A DNA stretch of 46,983 nucleotides from the NCBI GenBank assembly GCA_018818885.1, contig JAHIRB010000027.1:1-46983 (forward strand), given 5' to 3'. Numbering within the stretch: position 1 is the stretch's first letter; each line of letters opens with the position of its first letter. This DNA is from Patescibacteria group bacterium (GTDB taxonomy: Bacteria > Patescibacteriota > Patescibacteriia > Buchananbacterales > SURF-54). The notes below the pieces were generated by a model. That model saw nothing but the letters and a program-made list of their open reading frames with translations. It was not told where the DNA came from and searched no databases. Positions 21,265 through 46,983 of the stretch are shown one piece after another. The position numbers and the translations under genes were made by a program.

Positions 21265-22551
21265 CACTACTGTCCGATTAAATTTTACCAAAAGCACATT
21301 TGAGGACTATTTTGCCTTTTAATTCTAAATAAAGTCTTGGTTTCTAAGGATAATAAATCAATAATACTTCTTCTAAATAATAAGGTTTCTCTAATCATTC
21401 TAGTAAGCTCTAAGAGTGATTTTTTAAATTTAGTTTGAAATTTAATATAAGCTAATAATAAGTAATAAATCATAGCCACCCAGATTTGGGTTAAGACAGC
21501 ATTCTTGGAAGTTCCTAAGAATGTTTTAATTTTAAGGTTTTGTTTAATCCATTTAAAAAAGAGCTCTATTTGCCATCTTTCTTTGTAGATACTGGCTATC
21601 TGTAATCCAGTTAAGTCAAAATTGTTTGTTAAATAGGAATATTCTTTTTTAGTTTTTTTATCAAAATATCTAACCCCCCTTAATTTATTGGGGTATTTTT
21701 TCTTGGCTTTTCTATCTCCAAACTCAACTATCTCATCAGCAAGAATATTAGGCTCTAAAGTAGTTTTATGCTGTCCGAGAACAACAATATTCTGGTCTTT
21801 TCTTACTCTACTGACAAAGTAAATATTTCTGTCATTAAGTTTTTTCCACCATAGATAATCAATATATGCCCTGTCAAACACTAATATACTGCCTTTTTCA
21901 ATGCTTTCTAAGTTAATTTGCTTAAAAGCAGTAAGATCAGCTACTTTGCCTTCTGTAATATTGATAACTTCAGGAATTGCTGTCCGATTATTCATCAATA
22001 AATGAATTTTCAAAGCACCTTTAAGCTTAGAATATTTAGCCCAATCAAAGACAGTCAAACATAGGCTGATAATAGATGCGTCAAAAGTATAAAGAGGGTT
22101 GTCAAAGCTAAAATTTCTTTCTGGGGTTATCTCTTCGCATTGTTGCAGTAATGAATAAAACAATTTTTCAAATATTTGATAGCTTCTGCGATTATTGGCG
22201 TCAGAGATACTTGATCTGGCTGCTGTGTTCGCCCCTAAATGATACCAAGTTTGACTGTGAAGATTGAATCCTGTTTCAATTTCTCGCAGGCTGTCCTTGC
22301 CCGTAGCTTGAGCGTAAAGTAGAATGATGAATTGATTCCAGGAAGTCATTTTCTTAATATACTTATCTGCTTCATGTTGAACGACAAACTGATTAAATTT
22401 AGCTCTTGGTACAAACTGTAATAATTGATTGAAAATTGTGTTAGAATAACTCATAGGCCCCTAGTCAAGTTAATAGTTAGAGAGTCATTCTAATTATAGC
22501 TTAACTTAGGGGTTTTTTGTTATTTTGTAAAAATTTAATCGGACACTAGTG
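21265..22551 (-). mobile_element. Complete IS4-family-like insertion sequence (1287 bp)
   Basis: Terminal inverted repeats CACTACTGTCCGATTAAATTTT / CACTAGTGTCCGATTAAATTTT and a 9-bp TSD. Confidence 0.92.
21285..22454 (-). CDS. IS4-family-like transposase (DDE, DUF4372-type N-terminus)
   Basis: YTFDASIISL, LVFDRAYIDY, and YKERWQIELFFKWIK matching Y-x2-R-x3-E-x6-K. Confidence 0.92.
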   Translation of the reverse strand: MSYSNTIFNQLLQFVPRAKFNQFVVQHEADKYIKKMTSWNQFIILLYAQATGKDSLREIETGFNLHSQTWYHLGANTAARSSISDANNRRSYQIFEKLFYSLLQQCEEITPERNFSFDNPLYTFDASIISLCLTVFDWAKYSKLKGALKIHLLMNNRTAIPEVINITEGKVADLTAFKQINLESIEKGSILVFDRAYIDYLWWKKLNDRNIYFVSRVRKDQNIVVLGQHKTTLEPNILADEIVEFGDRKAKKKYPNKLRGVRYFDKKTKKEYSYLTNNFDLTGLQIASIYKERWQIELFFKWIKQNLKIKTFLGTSKNAVLTQIWVAMIYYLLLAYIKFQTKFKKSLLELTRMIRETLLFRRSIIDLLSLETKTLFRIKRQNSPQMCFW

Positions 22552-35118: not shown

Positions 35119-36270
35119 TTATAAAATCAATAATTGCTCTCCAATATGTTCAACGAAGTGGAATTTGACTAAAATAAGCGCGGTAACCAATGCGATAACA
35201 GCTAATGACTGCAAAATTACTTTTGGTTGCTGTATTCTTACTTTAATTATTACATTTAGAATCAAAGCAACAGATATAAATATTAAAAATGCGATAAAGA
35301 AAATGTTTGTATATTCAATCATTGCATCGGTTATGCTCTTTCTAGCAGATGTATTGGCAGATACTACAATAATACCTGGGGAATCTACAGCAAATTCAGC
35401 TGATTCACCAGCAACAACTTCATTTCCGGTAGCTTCGCCGACAACTTTTGTTTCTACTTGATTTGTAGGCTGAATATTTGTTGGTTGAGACACCTTAACG
35501 ACTTCTTCTCTTTGTAAACGTTGTGTGCCAAAAAACTGAACCAAAACATCAGTTTGCCTACCATTAATTTCACCGGAAACTACTGCAACTCCGATATCTT
35601 TATAATTTGGGTTTAAAATGTTTTTTTGATGTGTTGGACTTTTCATAAAGGCTTGATGGATCAACTCTGCAGACGAAAAATCCATAGCTAAATTTTCTCC
35701 TGCATAGATATAATCGTATTCTACTCTATCAATCCAAAGCCAAGGTTTTCTGCCATCTGGAGAATCATGCGAAAAATAATCCTTATCTATCATGTCTTGG
35801 GCTTTAGCCATGGCATATTTCGTTAAGTTAACGTTGAGATTAAGTGGTTCTACTCCGTTTTCAATTCTATCTTGATTTGCCATTTCAACTATTTTGGATG
35901 TAACAATATTAGCTAGTTCTGCAGGTGTTGGGTAATAAAAAAATAAAAAACCAGTTACGGCTATTTTAATACATATTAAAAGTAATGCGTATCCTACTAA
36001 TTTTTTTGGCCTTAAAGATAATGGATGATTATTATTTGCTTCGTGTGGAATAAAGTAGCATTTTAATTTACGTCTTAATCGTAGATAAAAATGCCCGCAT
36101 TCTTGTTCTTCTTTTTTTACAGCTTCAACTAAATCAGTGGCTTTTTCGTCAATATGATCCAATATATCCTGTTTTCTTTGGTAAATAAAAAGCCCAACCA
36201 AACTAGCAAGGCTTATAATTTTGAATATTTTTTTTGCTTTTTTAGTCCAATTTTTCTTCATATTATTCAT
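35119..36270 (-). CDS. Membrane-anchored CAP/SCP-domain (YkwD-like) protein
   Basis: IVEMANQDRIENGVEPLNLN, KAQDMIDKDYFSHDSPDGRKPW, YAGENLAMDF, HQKNILNPNYKDIGVAV; TM segments at both ends. Confidence 0.85.
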   Translation of the reverse strand: MNNMKKNWTKKAKKIFKIISLASLVGLFIYQRKQDILDHIDEKATDLVEAVKKEEQECGHFYLRLRRKLKCYFIPHEANNNHPLSLRPKKLVGYALLLICIKIAVTGFLFFYYPTPAELANIVTSKIVEMANQDRIENGVEPLNLNVNLTKYAMAKAQDMIDKDYFSHDSPDGRKPWLWIDRVEYDYIYAGENLAMDFSSAELIHQAFMKSPTHQKNILNPNYKDIGVAVVSGEINGRQTDVLVQFFGTQRLQREEVVKVSQPTNIQPTNQVETKVVGEATGNEVVAGESAEFAVDSPGIIVVSANTSARKSITDAMIEYTNIFFIAFLIFISVALILNVIIKVRIQQPKVILQSLAVIALVTALILVKFHFVEHIGEQLLIL

Positions 36271-36338
36271 CTTTTGTATTGTAACAGAAAAAGCAATTTT
36301 TGTCAAATAACAATAGAAAAACTTAATCCATAACCTAT

Positions 36339-36733
36339 TTGTCATTCCGAGCTTGCCGAGTCATGCCATAGGCAGATCCGCCTCTGGCGGAGAATCTCAC
36401 AACTCCCAATCTAGAGATAAATCATCAAAATTTGGATTGACAGACTTAATTAAATCGACTTTCTTCTTTCTTGTCCAACGTTTTAACTGTTTCTCTCGAT
36501 CAATAGCATCATAAATATATTCATACTCTTCGTAATAGACAAGCTTATTTATATTATACTTTGCCGTAAATCCATCGTTAGTTTTATCTTTATGATCTTT
36601 TATCCTGTTTTCCAAAGGACCACTAACTCCCACATAATTAACTGTATTATGTTTATTCATCATTATGTATGTATAGTATTGGTATTTCATTATTGTTTGA
36701 TGTGAGATCCCTCCACTCCGGTCGGGATGACAG
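36339..36733 (-). mobile_element. Inverted-repeat element containing a GIY-YIG gene
   Basis: Ends TTGTCATTCCGAGC... and ...GGTCGGGATGACAG; internal arms GGCGGAGAATCTCAC / GTGAGATCCCTCC; arms shared with 43594-43744 and 46881-46983. Confidence 0.7.
36397..36690 (-). CDS. GIY-YIG domain nuclease (97 aa)
   Basis: YYTYIMMNKHNTVNYVGVSGPLENRIKDHK..., LVYYEEYEYIYDAIDREKQLKRWTRKKKVDLI. Confidence 0.92.
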   Translation of the reverse strand: MKYQYYTYIMMNKHNTVNYVGVSGPLENRIKDHKDKTNDGFTAKYNINKLVYYEEYEYIYDAIDREKQLKRWTRKKKVDLIKSVNPNFDDLSLDWEL

Positions 36734-43593: not shown

Positions 43594-43744
43594 TTGTCAT
43601 CTCGACCGATGTTATTTTATGTTTTGTGAGCGGAGACCTGCCTGCCACAGGCAGGGATCTCACCCCATACTTATTGGAAGGTGTGGGATTCTCCGCCAGA
43701 GGCGGATCTGCCTATGGCATGACTCGACAAGCTCGGAATGACAA
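43594..43744. mobile_element. Non-coding MITE-like inverted-repeat element, copy 2
   Basis: TTGTCATCTCGACCG...GGGATCTCACC...GTGGGATTCTCCGCCAGAGGCGGATCTGCCTATGGCATGACTCGACAAGCTCGGAATGACAA; the last ~60 nt nearly match the complement of 36339-36400. Confidence 0.75.
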
Positions 43745-43760
43745 ACAGAATTATTTTAAT

Positions 43761-44246
43761 TTATTCTCTATATTTTGAAACTGTAGTTGATATGAATCCT
43801 AGCTTAGGAATGCGCGCGTTCCAATCTCCGATTGTATATAACTTTCCTATTACATCATCATATGATATTGCTGGATCTGCGACATTGTTTGCGTCTCCCT
43901 TAGTTATTAAGGTAGCTTCGTTTTTTTCCATAACTCTGTGAATAGTGAAAGCATTCTTTTTGTTAACAAACACTACGATATCACCTACCTCAACTTGCTC
44001 TTCTGCTTTGGTTACTCCTTGAATAAAGACTAAATCACTTGTATGTAGTGCTGGCCACATTGAGCCAGAGGTGATAGCAGCCATTGGATAAGGAGTTTTT
44101 AGATACCAGCTTAGTGCTCTAGGTAATCCCCAGATTAAGCCAGCAACTAATGCTATCCATAGTATGGTTCCGATTGCTGTTCTGATAACACGTTTTAGTG
44201 TGCTTTTTTTTGTTTTTGGTTTGTCTTGTTCGTTGTTTTGATTCAT
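43761..44246 (-). CDS. sipW: Signal peptidase I, SipW/ER-archaeal type (Ser-His)
   Basis: TM, then MAAITSGSMWPALHTSDLVFIQG, VGDIVVFVNKKNAFTIHRVMEKN, LITKGDANNVADPAIS. Start trimmed to MNQNNEQDK. Confidence 0.88.
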   Translation of the reverse strand: MNQNNEQDKPKTKKSTLKRVIRTAIGTILWIALVAGLIWGLPRALSWYLKTPYPMAAITSGSMWPALHTSDLVFIQGVTKAEEQVEVGDIVVFVNKKNAFTIHRVMEKNEATLITKGDANNVADPAISYDDVIGKLYTIGDWNARIPKLGFISTTVSKYRE

Positions 44247-44255
44247 ATTGTCTTT

Positions 44256-44320
44256 CTTGTAACTCGTAACTTGGAACGTCTCGTGACCATCGTGAAGCGT
44301 TACAAGTTTCAAGTTACAAG
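44256..44320. repeat. GTTACAAG-type repeat cluster, left of the four-helix-bundle gene
   Basis: CTTGTAACTCGTAACTTGG ... GCGTTACAAGTTTCAAGTTACAAG. Confidence 0.7.
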
Positions 44321-44328
44321 ATGTATAC

Positions 44329-44682
44329 TTACAACTTCGTGATAATGCCCCATAACATCGCGCCAATCTTATCTGCTATTTCCCTTAACTCATCTTGCTG
44401 TTCTTTGTTTATGTAATTTCTCTTTAAGCTGAAATAAATTAGATATTTACTTTCTTTCAATGATGCATACGAAATCTCTAAATAATTTTTATAAACCTTA
44501 TCTCGCCTTCTAGCGAATCCTTCAATATAATTCAGTATTACTGAAAGTGACGAACGTCGCAATTGCGATGTCACACCATACAGTTCTTCTTTAGGAAAGT
44601 CTTGCGTATAATCATATACTTTGCTGACATATTCATCCATCAACCTTTTTAGCTCCTTATGAAATTGATTTGTATAGTCCAT
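44329..44682 (-). CDS. Four-helix-bundle protein (23S rRNA intervening-sequence protein-like)
   Basis: LYGVTSQLRRSSLSVILNYIEGFARRRDKVYKNYLEISYASLKESKYLIYFS. Confidence 0.9.
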   Translation of the reverse strand: MDYTNQFHKELKRLMDEYVSKVYDYTQDFPKEELYGVTSQLRRSSLSVILNYIEGFARRRDKVYKNYLEISYASLKESKYLIYFSLKRNYINKEQQDELREIADKIGAMLWGIITKL

Positions 44683-45359: not shown

Positions 45360-46076
45360 TTAATCTACTAAATCGTCAGGATGATAAATGCCTGTAACCT
45401 CTATCCATAAGTCACAACCAAAAGTAAAACTTTCTAATGCAGGATCTAATATATAGTCGTTTGCATTCACATTTGGATTAATGCCTGCAACCCAATCTGC
45501 ATAACCTTGATCGCAATGTCCTTCAAAGCATGGAACTGCTAGATCGATTATCCATTCATCTGACTTGTCATCATCTTTGTTTATGGTTCCAGTTGCTACA
45601 TTAGCTGGATCTGTTGGGTCATGGAAAGCTAAAACACCATAGTCAGTATTTGGCTGTGGGTCTTCATATGCTGGGGTCTTCGATAAATATGCACATAACA
45701 GTGGCAATTCTGTATAACCTGCTGGGCATTGATCATCCCAGTAATTTACTTTTGCGTATAGACCTTCTGGGCATTGTGCACCAGTTGGGTCATCACAAGC
45801 ACATTTAGGTTTTTGTACTATCTTGTAATCAATACTAGTAACTCTTCTTTGATCGAGTTCGCAGAATGAATCACTTGTGGTAATCCAGATAGATTTTTCT
45901 AGATATTCTTGAGGAAATACTGTGCCAAACTCAAGTTCACCAGTTAGTGGTGTTACTCTCAAGGCATTTTCGATGTGAGCAGTCACGTTAATTACGTGTG
46001 CTTCGAAAGCAGCAAACATTGGAACTGTAGCAATAGCTACTGCCAATGCGACTACTATTAATAATGATTTTTTCAT
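45360..46076 (-). CDS. Secreted fibre-subunit-like protein with SipW-type signal peptide (TasA/CalY-like by motif)
   Basis: [65 protein letters not shown]...FGCDLWIEVTGIYHPDD. Confidence 0.72.
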   Translation of the reverse strand: MKKSLLIVVALAVAIATVPMFAAFEAHVINVTAHIENALRVTPLTGELEFGTVFPQEYLEKSIWITTSDSFCELDQRRVTSIDYKIVQKPKCACDDPTGAQCPEGLYAKVNYWDDQCPAGYTELPLLCAYLSKTPAYEDPQPNTDYGVLAFHDPTDPANVATGTINKDDDKSDEWIIDLAVPCFEGHCDQGYADWVAGINPNVNANDYILDPALESFTFGCDLWIEVTGIYHPDDLVD

Positions 46077-46176: not shown

Positions 46177-46860
46177 TTAAGTTTGATCACCGTAAATACC
46201 TGTAACTTCAATCCATAGATCACAACCGTAATCTTGTGAATCTTCTGCTACAGTTGGGCAACCTTCTGGCCAATCTTGTGCTTCATTACCTTTAACTGGA
46301 GGTACTTTTAAGTCAACAATCCAACTATCAGTTGGGTCATCATGTTGAATAAGAACACCAGAGGCATCAGGCAATTGTGAAACATCTCGGCATGAATCTG
46401 GATCACCAGCTACAAAATAACTTGGATGGCTAGTATCATTTCCTTCATCATCCCATGGTGCATCTGTTTTAGACAAGAATTCGCATAGATCTAGCATTTC
46501 TTCAAATCCTGCTGGACATTCGTCATTCCAGTAGTTGACTGCAGCATGTTCACCTTCTACACAAAGTTTGTCTAGAATACCTGCTTCAGTACAAATACAT
46601 TTTGGTTTCTGCTTAATTACATACTCTACAACACCTACTCTATCTTGCCCTTGGAATGAATCACTTAGATCAATGTCGAAATTCAATTCTAAGTATTCTT
46701 GTGGGAATACAGTACCGAAAGCTAATTCTTCTGTATGTACTCTCAAGGCATTTTCGATGTGAGCAGTCACGTTAATTACGTGTGCTTCGAAAGCTGCAAA
46801 CATTGGAACAGTTGCAACAGCAATTGCTAATGCAAATGTTATTAATAATGCTTTTTTCAT
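46177..46860 (-). CDS. Paralogous secreted fibre-subunit-like protein with SipW-type signal peptide
   Basis: [63 protein letters not shown]...YGCDLWIEVTGIYGDQT; start trimmed to the Met preceded by GGAG. Confidence 0.72.
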   Translation of the reverse strand: MKKALLITFALAIAVATVPMFAAFEAHVINVTAHIENALRVHTEELAFGTVFPQEYLELNFDIDLSDSFQGQDRVGVVEYVIKQKPKCICTEAGILDKLCVEGEHAAVNYWNDECPAGFEEMLDLCEFLSKTDAPWDDEGNDTSHPSYFVAGDPDSCRDVSQLPDASGVLIQHDDPTDSWIVDLKVPPVKGNEAQDWPEGCPTVAEDSQDYGCDLWIEVTGIYGDQT

Positions 46861-46880
46861 AATTTTATTCTCCATTCCTG

Positions 46881-46983
46881 TTGTCATCTCGACCGATATT
46901 TTAGTAATTTTACGCAAGTGGAGAGATCTCATACCTTACTTTATTGTTTGATGTGAGATTCCTCGACAAGCTCGGAATGACAA
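46881..46983. mobile_element. Non-coding MITE-like inverted-repeat element, copy 3 (reaches window edge)
   Basis: TTGTCATCTCGACCGATATTTT...GAGAGATCTCAT...TATTGTTTGATGTGAGATTCCTCGACAAGCTCGGAATGACAA. Confidence 0.72.

What the first reader, a model, noticed from the sequence alone, without database searches (positions are those of the whole stretch)
36339..36733. GIY-YIG nuclease gene sitting exactly inside an inverted-repeat element with empty copies nearby
The GIY-YIG ORF (36397-36690) is bounded by arms TTGTCATTCCGAGCTTGCCGAGTCATGCC...GGCGGAGAATCTCAC and TGTGAGATCCCTCCACTCCGGTCGGGATGACA. Its stop codon TGA lies inside the arm's GTGAGAT. Gene-free elements with the same arms occur at 43594-43744 and 46881-46983. 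Sequence TATTGTTTGATGTGAGAT is identical at 36691-36708 and 46942-46959. The hypothesis is a nuclease-driven (non-DDE) mobile element with MITE-like derivatives.
Basis: partly seen in the sequence, partly recalled or inferred. Interest (0 to 1): 0.8.

Follow-up and report, generated by a model that had tools for sequence, protein, structure and literature searches.

The report
Nuclease gene nested inside its repeat
A tiny DNA-cutting enzyme gene sits between two mirror-image repeats that it appears to recognise; the same arrangement recurs across many bacterial phyla, which makes the enzyme the best candidate yet for what spreads a widespread class of bacterial repeats with no known mobiliser.

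Summary
The window's GIY-YIG gene (36397-36690, minus strand) lies exactly between two outward-facing TGTCAT-tagged palindromic arms. The arms occur about 28 times in the genome, mostly as gene-free pairs. In 236 usable relatives from several phyla, 66% have the outward tag on both sides and 86% on at least one. Controls: same-locus windows 2.3% (both sides), a sister GIY-YIG subfamily 0/41, Y1 transposases 0/20. The arms are the CGTC-tagged REPs of Di Nocera et al. 2013, who stated that these "apparently lack a dedicated transposase".

A short C-terminal protein motif predicts the arm sequence: 93/109 in loci fetched later, 52/58 with arms shuffled only within genomes (0/20000), and independent tree contrasts (p=5e-10). 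Four relatives keep the neighbouring genes but lack both gene and arms. In Sinorhizobium a ~570-bp repeat-gene-repeat unit occurs at two unrelated sites. dN/dS between measurable copies is mostly 0.01-0.07.

Best reading: a two-part selfish system, a cognate GIY-YIG nuclease plus CGTC-REPs, analogous to REP/RAYT but using an unrelated enzyme. Cleavage and mobility are inferred, not shown.

The parts
36340..36400 (.). Left REP arm (3' side of the gene): TGTCATTCCGAGCTTGCCGAG, an embedded small palindrome (GCCATAGGCAGATCCGCCTCTGGCGGA), then GAATCTCAC; overlaps the stop codon
36397..36690 (-). 97-aa single-domain GIY-YIG nuclease; specificity motif REKQLKRWTRKK (WxRxK class)
36691..36732 (.). Right REP arm (5' side of the gene): TATTGTTTGATGTGAGATCCCTCCACTCCGGTCGGGATGACA
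43595..43743 (.). Gene-free pair of outward-facing REPs with the same arms; folds better than all 200 shuffles
46882..46982 (.). Gene-free REP pair at the contig end; shares the 18-nt spacer edge with the nuclease copy; folds no better than shuffles

Best explanation
The feature is a selfish unit made of two CGTC/TGTC-tagged REPs facing outward with a small GIY-YIG nuclease gene between them. The nuclease reads the REP arm through a C-terminal motif (K-x-W/G-x-R-x-x) and probably the loop between its first two strands, and is inferred to nick or cut REP DNA. Repair or strand exchange would then copy the REP-nuclease-REP unit, and in trans the gene-free REP pairs, to other sites. Shown: specific nesting across phyla; motif-arm covariation; gain of arms and gene together; one unit at two loci; purifying selection. 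Inferred: cleavage, and whether spread is by homing into existing REPs or by transposition.
For: Nesting: 155/236 loci have outward tags on both sides, 204/236 on at least one, against 3/131 control windows (both), 0/41 sister GIY-YIG and 0/20 Y1 transposase genes. Up and down arms match within a locus (0.745) more than between loci (0.442). Recognition: covariation with arm bases peaks at protein columns 69-71 and 74, with a second patch at 12-15; motif predicts arm class in 93/109 later loci (shuffled mean 32, max 50) and 52/58 under within-genome shuffles (mean 25.9, 0/20000); 32 of 40 tree-independent arm switches go with a motif switch against 11 of 63 for unchanged arms, p=5e-10, tree built without those columns. 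Mobility: empty orthologous site for this very element in four relatives; A. lipoferum sufB-sufC insertion; Sphingobium and Sinorhizobium empty sites; 570-bp unit at two sites. dN/dS 0.01-0.07 in most measurable pairs. Own genome: two gene-bearing copies beside ~26 gene-free tag hits, nearly all pairs.
Against: No activity data. Several genomes rich in tags lack the nuclease (G021, G047), and Y1 transposase presence correlates with tag excess about as well as the nuclease does. About a third of loci lack tags on both sides. No target-site duplication or base-exact boundary could be defined. Arm and motif classes were defined after seeing the first 70 or so loci, although the later set confirms them. 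Strong purifying selection is unusual for a purely selfish homing gene and would also fit a host function.
Confidence: 0.68

Rival explanations
1. Homing only: the nuclease cuts REPs that lack the gene, and the break is repaired from a gene-bearing REP using the REP as homology. The gene colonises pre-existing REPs but does not spread the REPs themselves.
For: Two empty sites carry a solo palindrome where relatives carry REP-gene-REP: Sphingobium TomTYG64/74 and S. meliloti at the purQ site. Arms mostly match the motif class even when one genome holds several REP types.
Against: At the window locus and in Azospirillum relatives have no REP at all, and Sphingobium TomTYG72 has none. A solo palindrome could equally be a collapsed scar of a lost unit.
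Confidence: 0.3
2. A Y1/RAYT-type transposase spreads these REPs, and the GIY-YIG gene is a passenger that recognises them.
For: Y1 proteins occur in 34/55 relatives, including six matches in this genome, and their presence correlates with tag excess.
Against: 0/20 Y1 genes are flanked by these tags on both sides. Di Nocera et al. found no transposase gene flanked by CGTC repeats beyond a few fortuitous cases (PMC3733652). Seven genomes with the nuclease and no Y1 gene have a high median tag excess of 45.
Confidence: 0.15
3. A host repair or maintenance nuclease that processes REP cruciforms and is regulated by REPs flanking its own gene.
For: Low dN/dS; single or few copies in most genomes.
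Against: Patchy presence (76 of 240 and 64 of 148 genomes); absent from orthologous sites; duplicated as a REP-to-REP unit; up to eight copies in one genome.
Confidence: 0.12
4. Neutral association: small genes and REPs simply share intergenic space, and the arms are terminators.
For: REPs are intergenic and often next to gene ends (PMC3733652).
Against: Sister GIY-YIG genes in the same genomes show 0/41 both-side tags; the motif-arm code holds within genomes.
Confidence: 0.02

Closest known systems
REP/RAYT systems (REPtrons, REPINs)
   Same: A nuclease gene flanked by REPs in inverted pairs, many gene-free pairs in the genome, REP-specific enzyme variants.
   Different: Enzyme is GIY-YIG, not HUH/Y1; repeats carry a CGTC/TGTC tag, not GTAG.
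CGTC-tagged REPs (Neisseria dRS3, Rickettsia RPE-4/6)
   Same: Tag CGTC/TGTC/CCTC, palindromic stem starting AT, paired outward organisation; the Neisseria, Azospirillum, Sinorhizobium and Novosphingobium loci here are in taxa of that survey or their close kin.
   Different: Reported in 2013 as lacking a dedicated transposase; here a cognate nuclease gene is found inside them.
Free-standing GIY-YIG homing endonuclease genes
   Same: Small solitary nuclease gene, patchy distribution, occupied and empty sites.
   Different: Sits in a dispersed palindromic repeat rather than a conserved gene; single domain, no separate DNA-binding domain; carries repeat arms with it.
UPF0213 / YhbQ-type GIY-YIG proteins (1ZG2, 1YWL)
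   Same: Nearest solved structures: both by sequence, 1ZG2 also by fold.
   Different: The sister ~85-aa GIY-YIG subfamily of these genomes is not REP-flanked (0/41) and is instead often beside tRNA genes.

Membership tests
CGTC-tagged REP superfamily (arms) | CGTC or TGTC/CCTC tag at one end, stem beginning AT, outward paired dimers, many copies | tested here: met
   28 TGTCAT-type tags in the genome, nearly all in outward pairs; definition from PMC3733652. Stems here are longer and often imperfect; the CCA tail is not evident in this genome but is in the Azospirillum and Aeromonas loci.
GIY-YIG nuclease superfamily | GIY-YIG domain with conserved Tyr, Tyr, Arg, Glu, Asn | tested here: met
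   Pfam 56.9 bits; Y8, Y19, G21, R29, H33, E66, N85 invariant in three members from different phyla; best fold match 1ZG2.
RAYT / REPtron | HUH Y1 transposase flanked by GTAG REPs | tested here: not met
   Enzyme is GIY-YIG; tag is TGTC.
Homing endonuclease gene | Occupied and empty target sites | tested here: met
Homing endonuclease gene | Cleaves empty target site and converts it | not testable with these tools
   needs biochemistry
DDE insertion sequence / MITE | DDE transposase and target-site duplication | tested here: inconclusive
   No DDE gene between the arms; flanks too diverged to see a duplication. The IS4 gene at 21285-22454 was not tested for such arms.

The most novel reading that the evidence does not exclude
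A categorically new class of mobile element: an autonomous unit whose only protein is a ~95-aa GIY-YIG nuclease that recognises and mobilises CGTC-type REPs across bacteria, making these repeats the non-autonomous members of a GIY-YIG-driven transposon class with a readable protein-DNA specificity code.
Probability: 0.45. Interest if true: 0.95.

Novelty: new variant of a known kind. Interest (0 to 1): 0.87.

Why it matters
CGTC-type REPs are widespread short repeats of bacterial genomes, and the paper that defined them left their mobiliser open. A cognate nuclease encoded inside the repeats would make that question directly testable. It would show that REP-like systems arose at least twice with unrelated enzymes, and it offers very small nucleases with an apparent specificity code of a few residues against a few bases.

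Tried and rejected
First impression that S. meliloti and Sinorhizobium M103 form an occupied/empty pair at hflX-mazG was wrong: M103 carries the gene there too and differs only in the number of REP pairs. The correlation of tag excess with nuclease presence is real but weak and shared with Y1 transposases, so it is not used as main evidence. The repeat finder missed the arms because of mismatches and small insertions. The single-sequence genome-contig scan found only two loci. Rhizobium CIAT894 and R. tumorigenes loci gave no usable empty site. Literature searches for GIY-YIG with REP, RAYT, palindromic repeat, dRS3 or COG2827 found no prior link; preprints were not searchable. The whole genome was not available as a file, so arms were surveyed by pattern search.

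Full report
WHAT IS IN THE WINDOW. The ORF at 36397-36690 (-) encodes a 97-aa protein with a full GIY-YIG domain. On its 3' side lies TGTCATTCCGAGCTTGCCGAG...GAATCTCAC (from 36340) and on its 5' side ...GTGAGATCCCTCCACTCCGGTCGGGATGACA (to 36732). The stop codon lies in the arm and the ATG directly inside the other arm. Gene-free pairs with the same outer arms are at 43595-43743 and 46882-46982.

THE GENOME. The window is contig C3 of a 1.35-Mb, 51-contig genome. The tag TGTCATTCCGAGC occurs 28 times with at most one mismatch, against 0 for the reversed control. Two of these copies hold a GIY-YIG gene: this one, and one at C1:38541-38774 that runs off the contig end (85% identical protein). Nearly all the rest are compact outward-facing pairs of roughly 44-210 bp holding no gene. 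A third member of the subfamily, at C15:2829-3098, has a different palindromic repeat downstream.

GENERALITY. The subfamily occurs in 31 of 55 relatives, 76 of 240 genomes of the phylum and 64 of 148 genomes of the phylum reached through a Bacteroidetes locus. It also occurs in Neisseria, Azospirillum, Sinorhizobium, Rhizobium, Shinella, Sphingobium, Novosphingobium, Aeromonas, Photobacterium, Planktothrix, Spirosoma and an Acidobacteriales MAG. In 236 usable loci an outward GTCAT tag lies within 150 bp on both sides in 155 (66%) and on at least one side in 204 (86%). Windows elsewhere in the same loci give 3/131 for both (Fisher p=5e-38). An alignment-based test on the first 64 loci put 30 above the 99th percentile of control windows. 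The sister ~85-aa GIY-YIG subfamily in the same genomes gives 0/41, and Y1 transposase genes 0/20. Upstream and downstream arms agree within a locus (0.745 identity over eight bases) beyond agreement between loci (0.442).

WHAT THE ARMS ARE. Di Nocera et al. 2013 (PMC3733652) defined two REP superfamilies. GTAG REPs go with RAYT transposases. CGTC REPs (tag also TGTC or CCTC; Neisseria dRS3 is one) occur mainly as paired units and "apparently lack a dedicated transposase". The arms here fit that description, and the Neisseria, Azospirillum, Sinorhizobium and Novosphingobium loci lie in taxa of that survey or their close kin. No searchable paper links GIY-YIG proteins to these repeats; preprints and most subscription journals could not be searched.

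A RECOGNITION CODE. Mutual information between protein columns and arm bases peaks at columns 69, 70, 71 and 74 of the alignment (motif EKQ[IL]K-K-W-S-R-K-K), with a second patch at columns 12-15. In the model that second patch is the loop between the first two strands, and the first lies at the junction of two helices (mean pLDDT 79, three-sequence alignment). Four classes follow: IKxGSR with GTCATYGCGAG; WHRxW with GTCATnYTGAAC; other WxRxW with GTCATnCCCG and similar; WxRxK with GTCATnYYGAG. Classes were set on the first loci. In loci fetched later 93 of 109 classifiable ones are cognate, against a shuffled mean of 32 and maximum of 50 in 20000. Shuffling only within genomes that hold several classes, 52 of 58 are cognate against 25.9 (sd 4.3), never reached in 20000. 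On a tree built without the specificity columns, 40 independent pairs with different arms differ in motif class 32 times, against 11 of 63 pairs with the same arms (p=5e-10). This is hard to explain unless the protein reads the arm.

MOBILITY. The neighbours of the window element (FN3-domain and CAP-domain genes) remain together in G001, G002, G004 and G005, with neither gene nor arms between them. In Azospirillum lipoferum 4B the unit splits sufB from sufC, while A. ramasamyi, A. oryzae, B510 and A. thermophilum have short intergenic spacers there. In Sphingobium the fnrL neighbour site holds the unit in TomTYG46 and TomMM15, a solo palindrome in TomTYG64 and TomTYG74, and nothing similar in TomTYG72. 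Sinorhizobium K101 has the unit at purQ, where S. meliloti Ak57 has a solo palindrome. The purQ copy of K101 and the hflX copy of the closely related M103 (99% identical proteins) share about 570 bp running from REP pair to REP pair, with unrelated sequence outside. Boundaries are not base-exact and no target duplication could be seen. dN/dS is 0.01-0.07 for most measurable pairs (0.17 by the same counts for one Sphingobium pair; dS saturated for the two window-genome copies), so the protein is kept functional.

HOW IT PROBABLY WORKS. The nuclease binds cognate REP arms and is inferred to nick or cut there. Repair then copies the REP-gene-REP unit to another site, with gene-free pairs moved in trans. 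Solo palindromes at some empty sites favour homing into existing REPs; sites with no REP in relatives favour new insertion. I cannot decide between these. Y1 transposases are a live alternative for spreading the REPs, because their presence also tracks tag excess, but none of 20 is flanked by these tags on both sides.

MEMBERSHIP AND NOVELTY. The arms meet the definition of CGTC REPs and the protein that of GIY-YIG nucleases. The unit works like a REP/RAYT system but is not one: wrong enzyme, wrong tag. I file it as a new variant of a known kind, with a substantial chance that it is a new class of mobile element.

Noticed in passing
L030, L034, L038, L040, L041, L042 (own genome); L298-L326 (relatives): The sister ~85-aa GIY-YIG subfamily lies within 300 bp of a tRNA gene in about a third of 41 loci. 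In the own genome several copies have a partial copy of the 5' half of the adjacent tRNA just upstream (L030, 37-nt direct repeat), as if inserted at the anticodon region.
   Followed up: partly
L031 and L033 (own genome), L313: Further GIY-YIG genes of that sister subfamily sit inside other inverted repeats (ACCCAGCACCTTTT; CCCCGTTAGAAATTT).
   Followed up: no
L127, L129, L132: Sites that hold REP-nuclease-REP in one strain hold a single symmetric palindrome in a relative: excision scar or pre-insertion target.
   Followed up: partly
L116, L131: Number of direct REP-pair copies beside the nuclease differs (three against one) between Sinorhizobium strains, so REP pairs amplify locally.
   Followed up: no
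G021, G047: Genomes with very many tags but no nuclease of this subfamily; both have Y1 transposases.
   Followed up: no
46882-46983; G000:C1:38541-38774: Contigs end inside a REP pair and inside the second nuclease copy, so these repeats break the assembly and copy numbers are lower bounds.
   Followed up: no
35119-36345; 46177-46932: The called starts of two ORFs lie within or at the edge of REP arms; true starts are probably downstream.
   Followed up: no
21285-22454: Full-length IS4-family transposase gene (DDE_Tnp_1 with DUF4372).
   Followed up: no
45360-46076 and 46177-46932: Two adjacent paralogous secreted proteins (shared [21 protein letters not shown]) beside a probable signal peptidase (43761-44366).
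   Followed up: no
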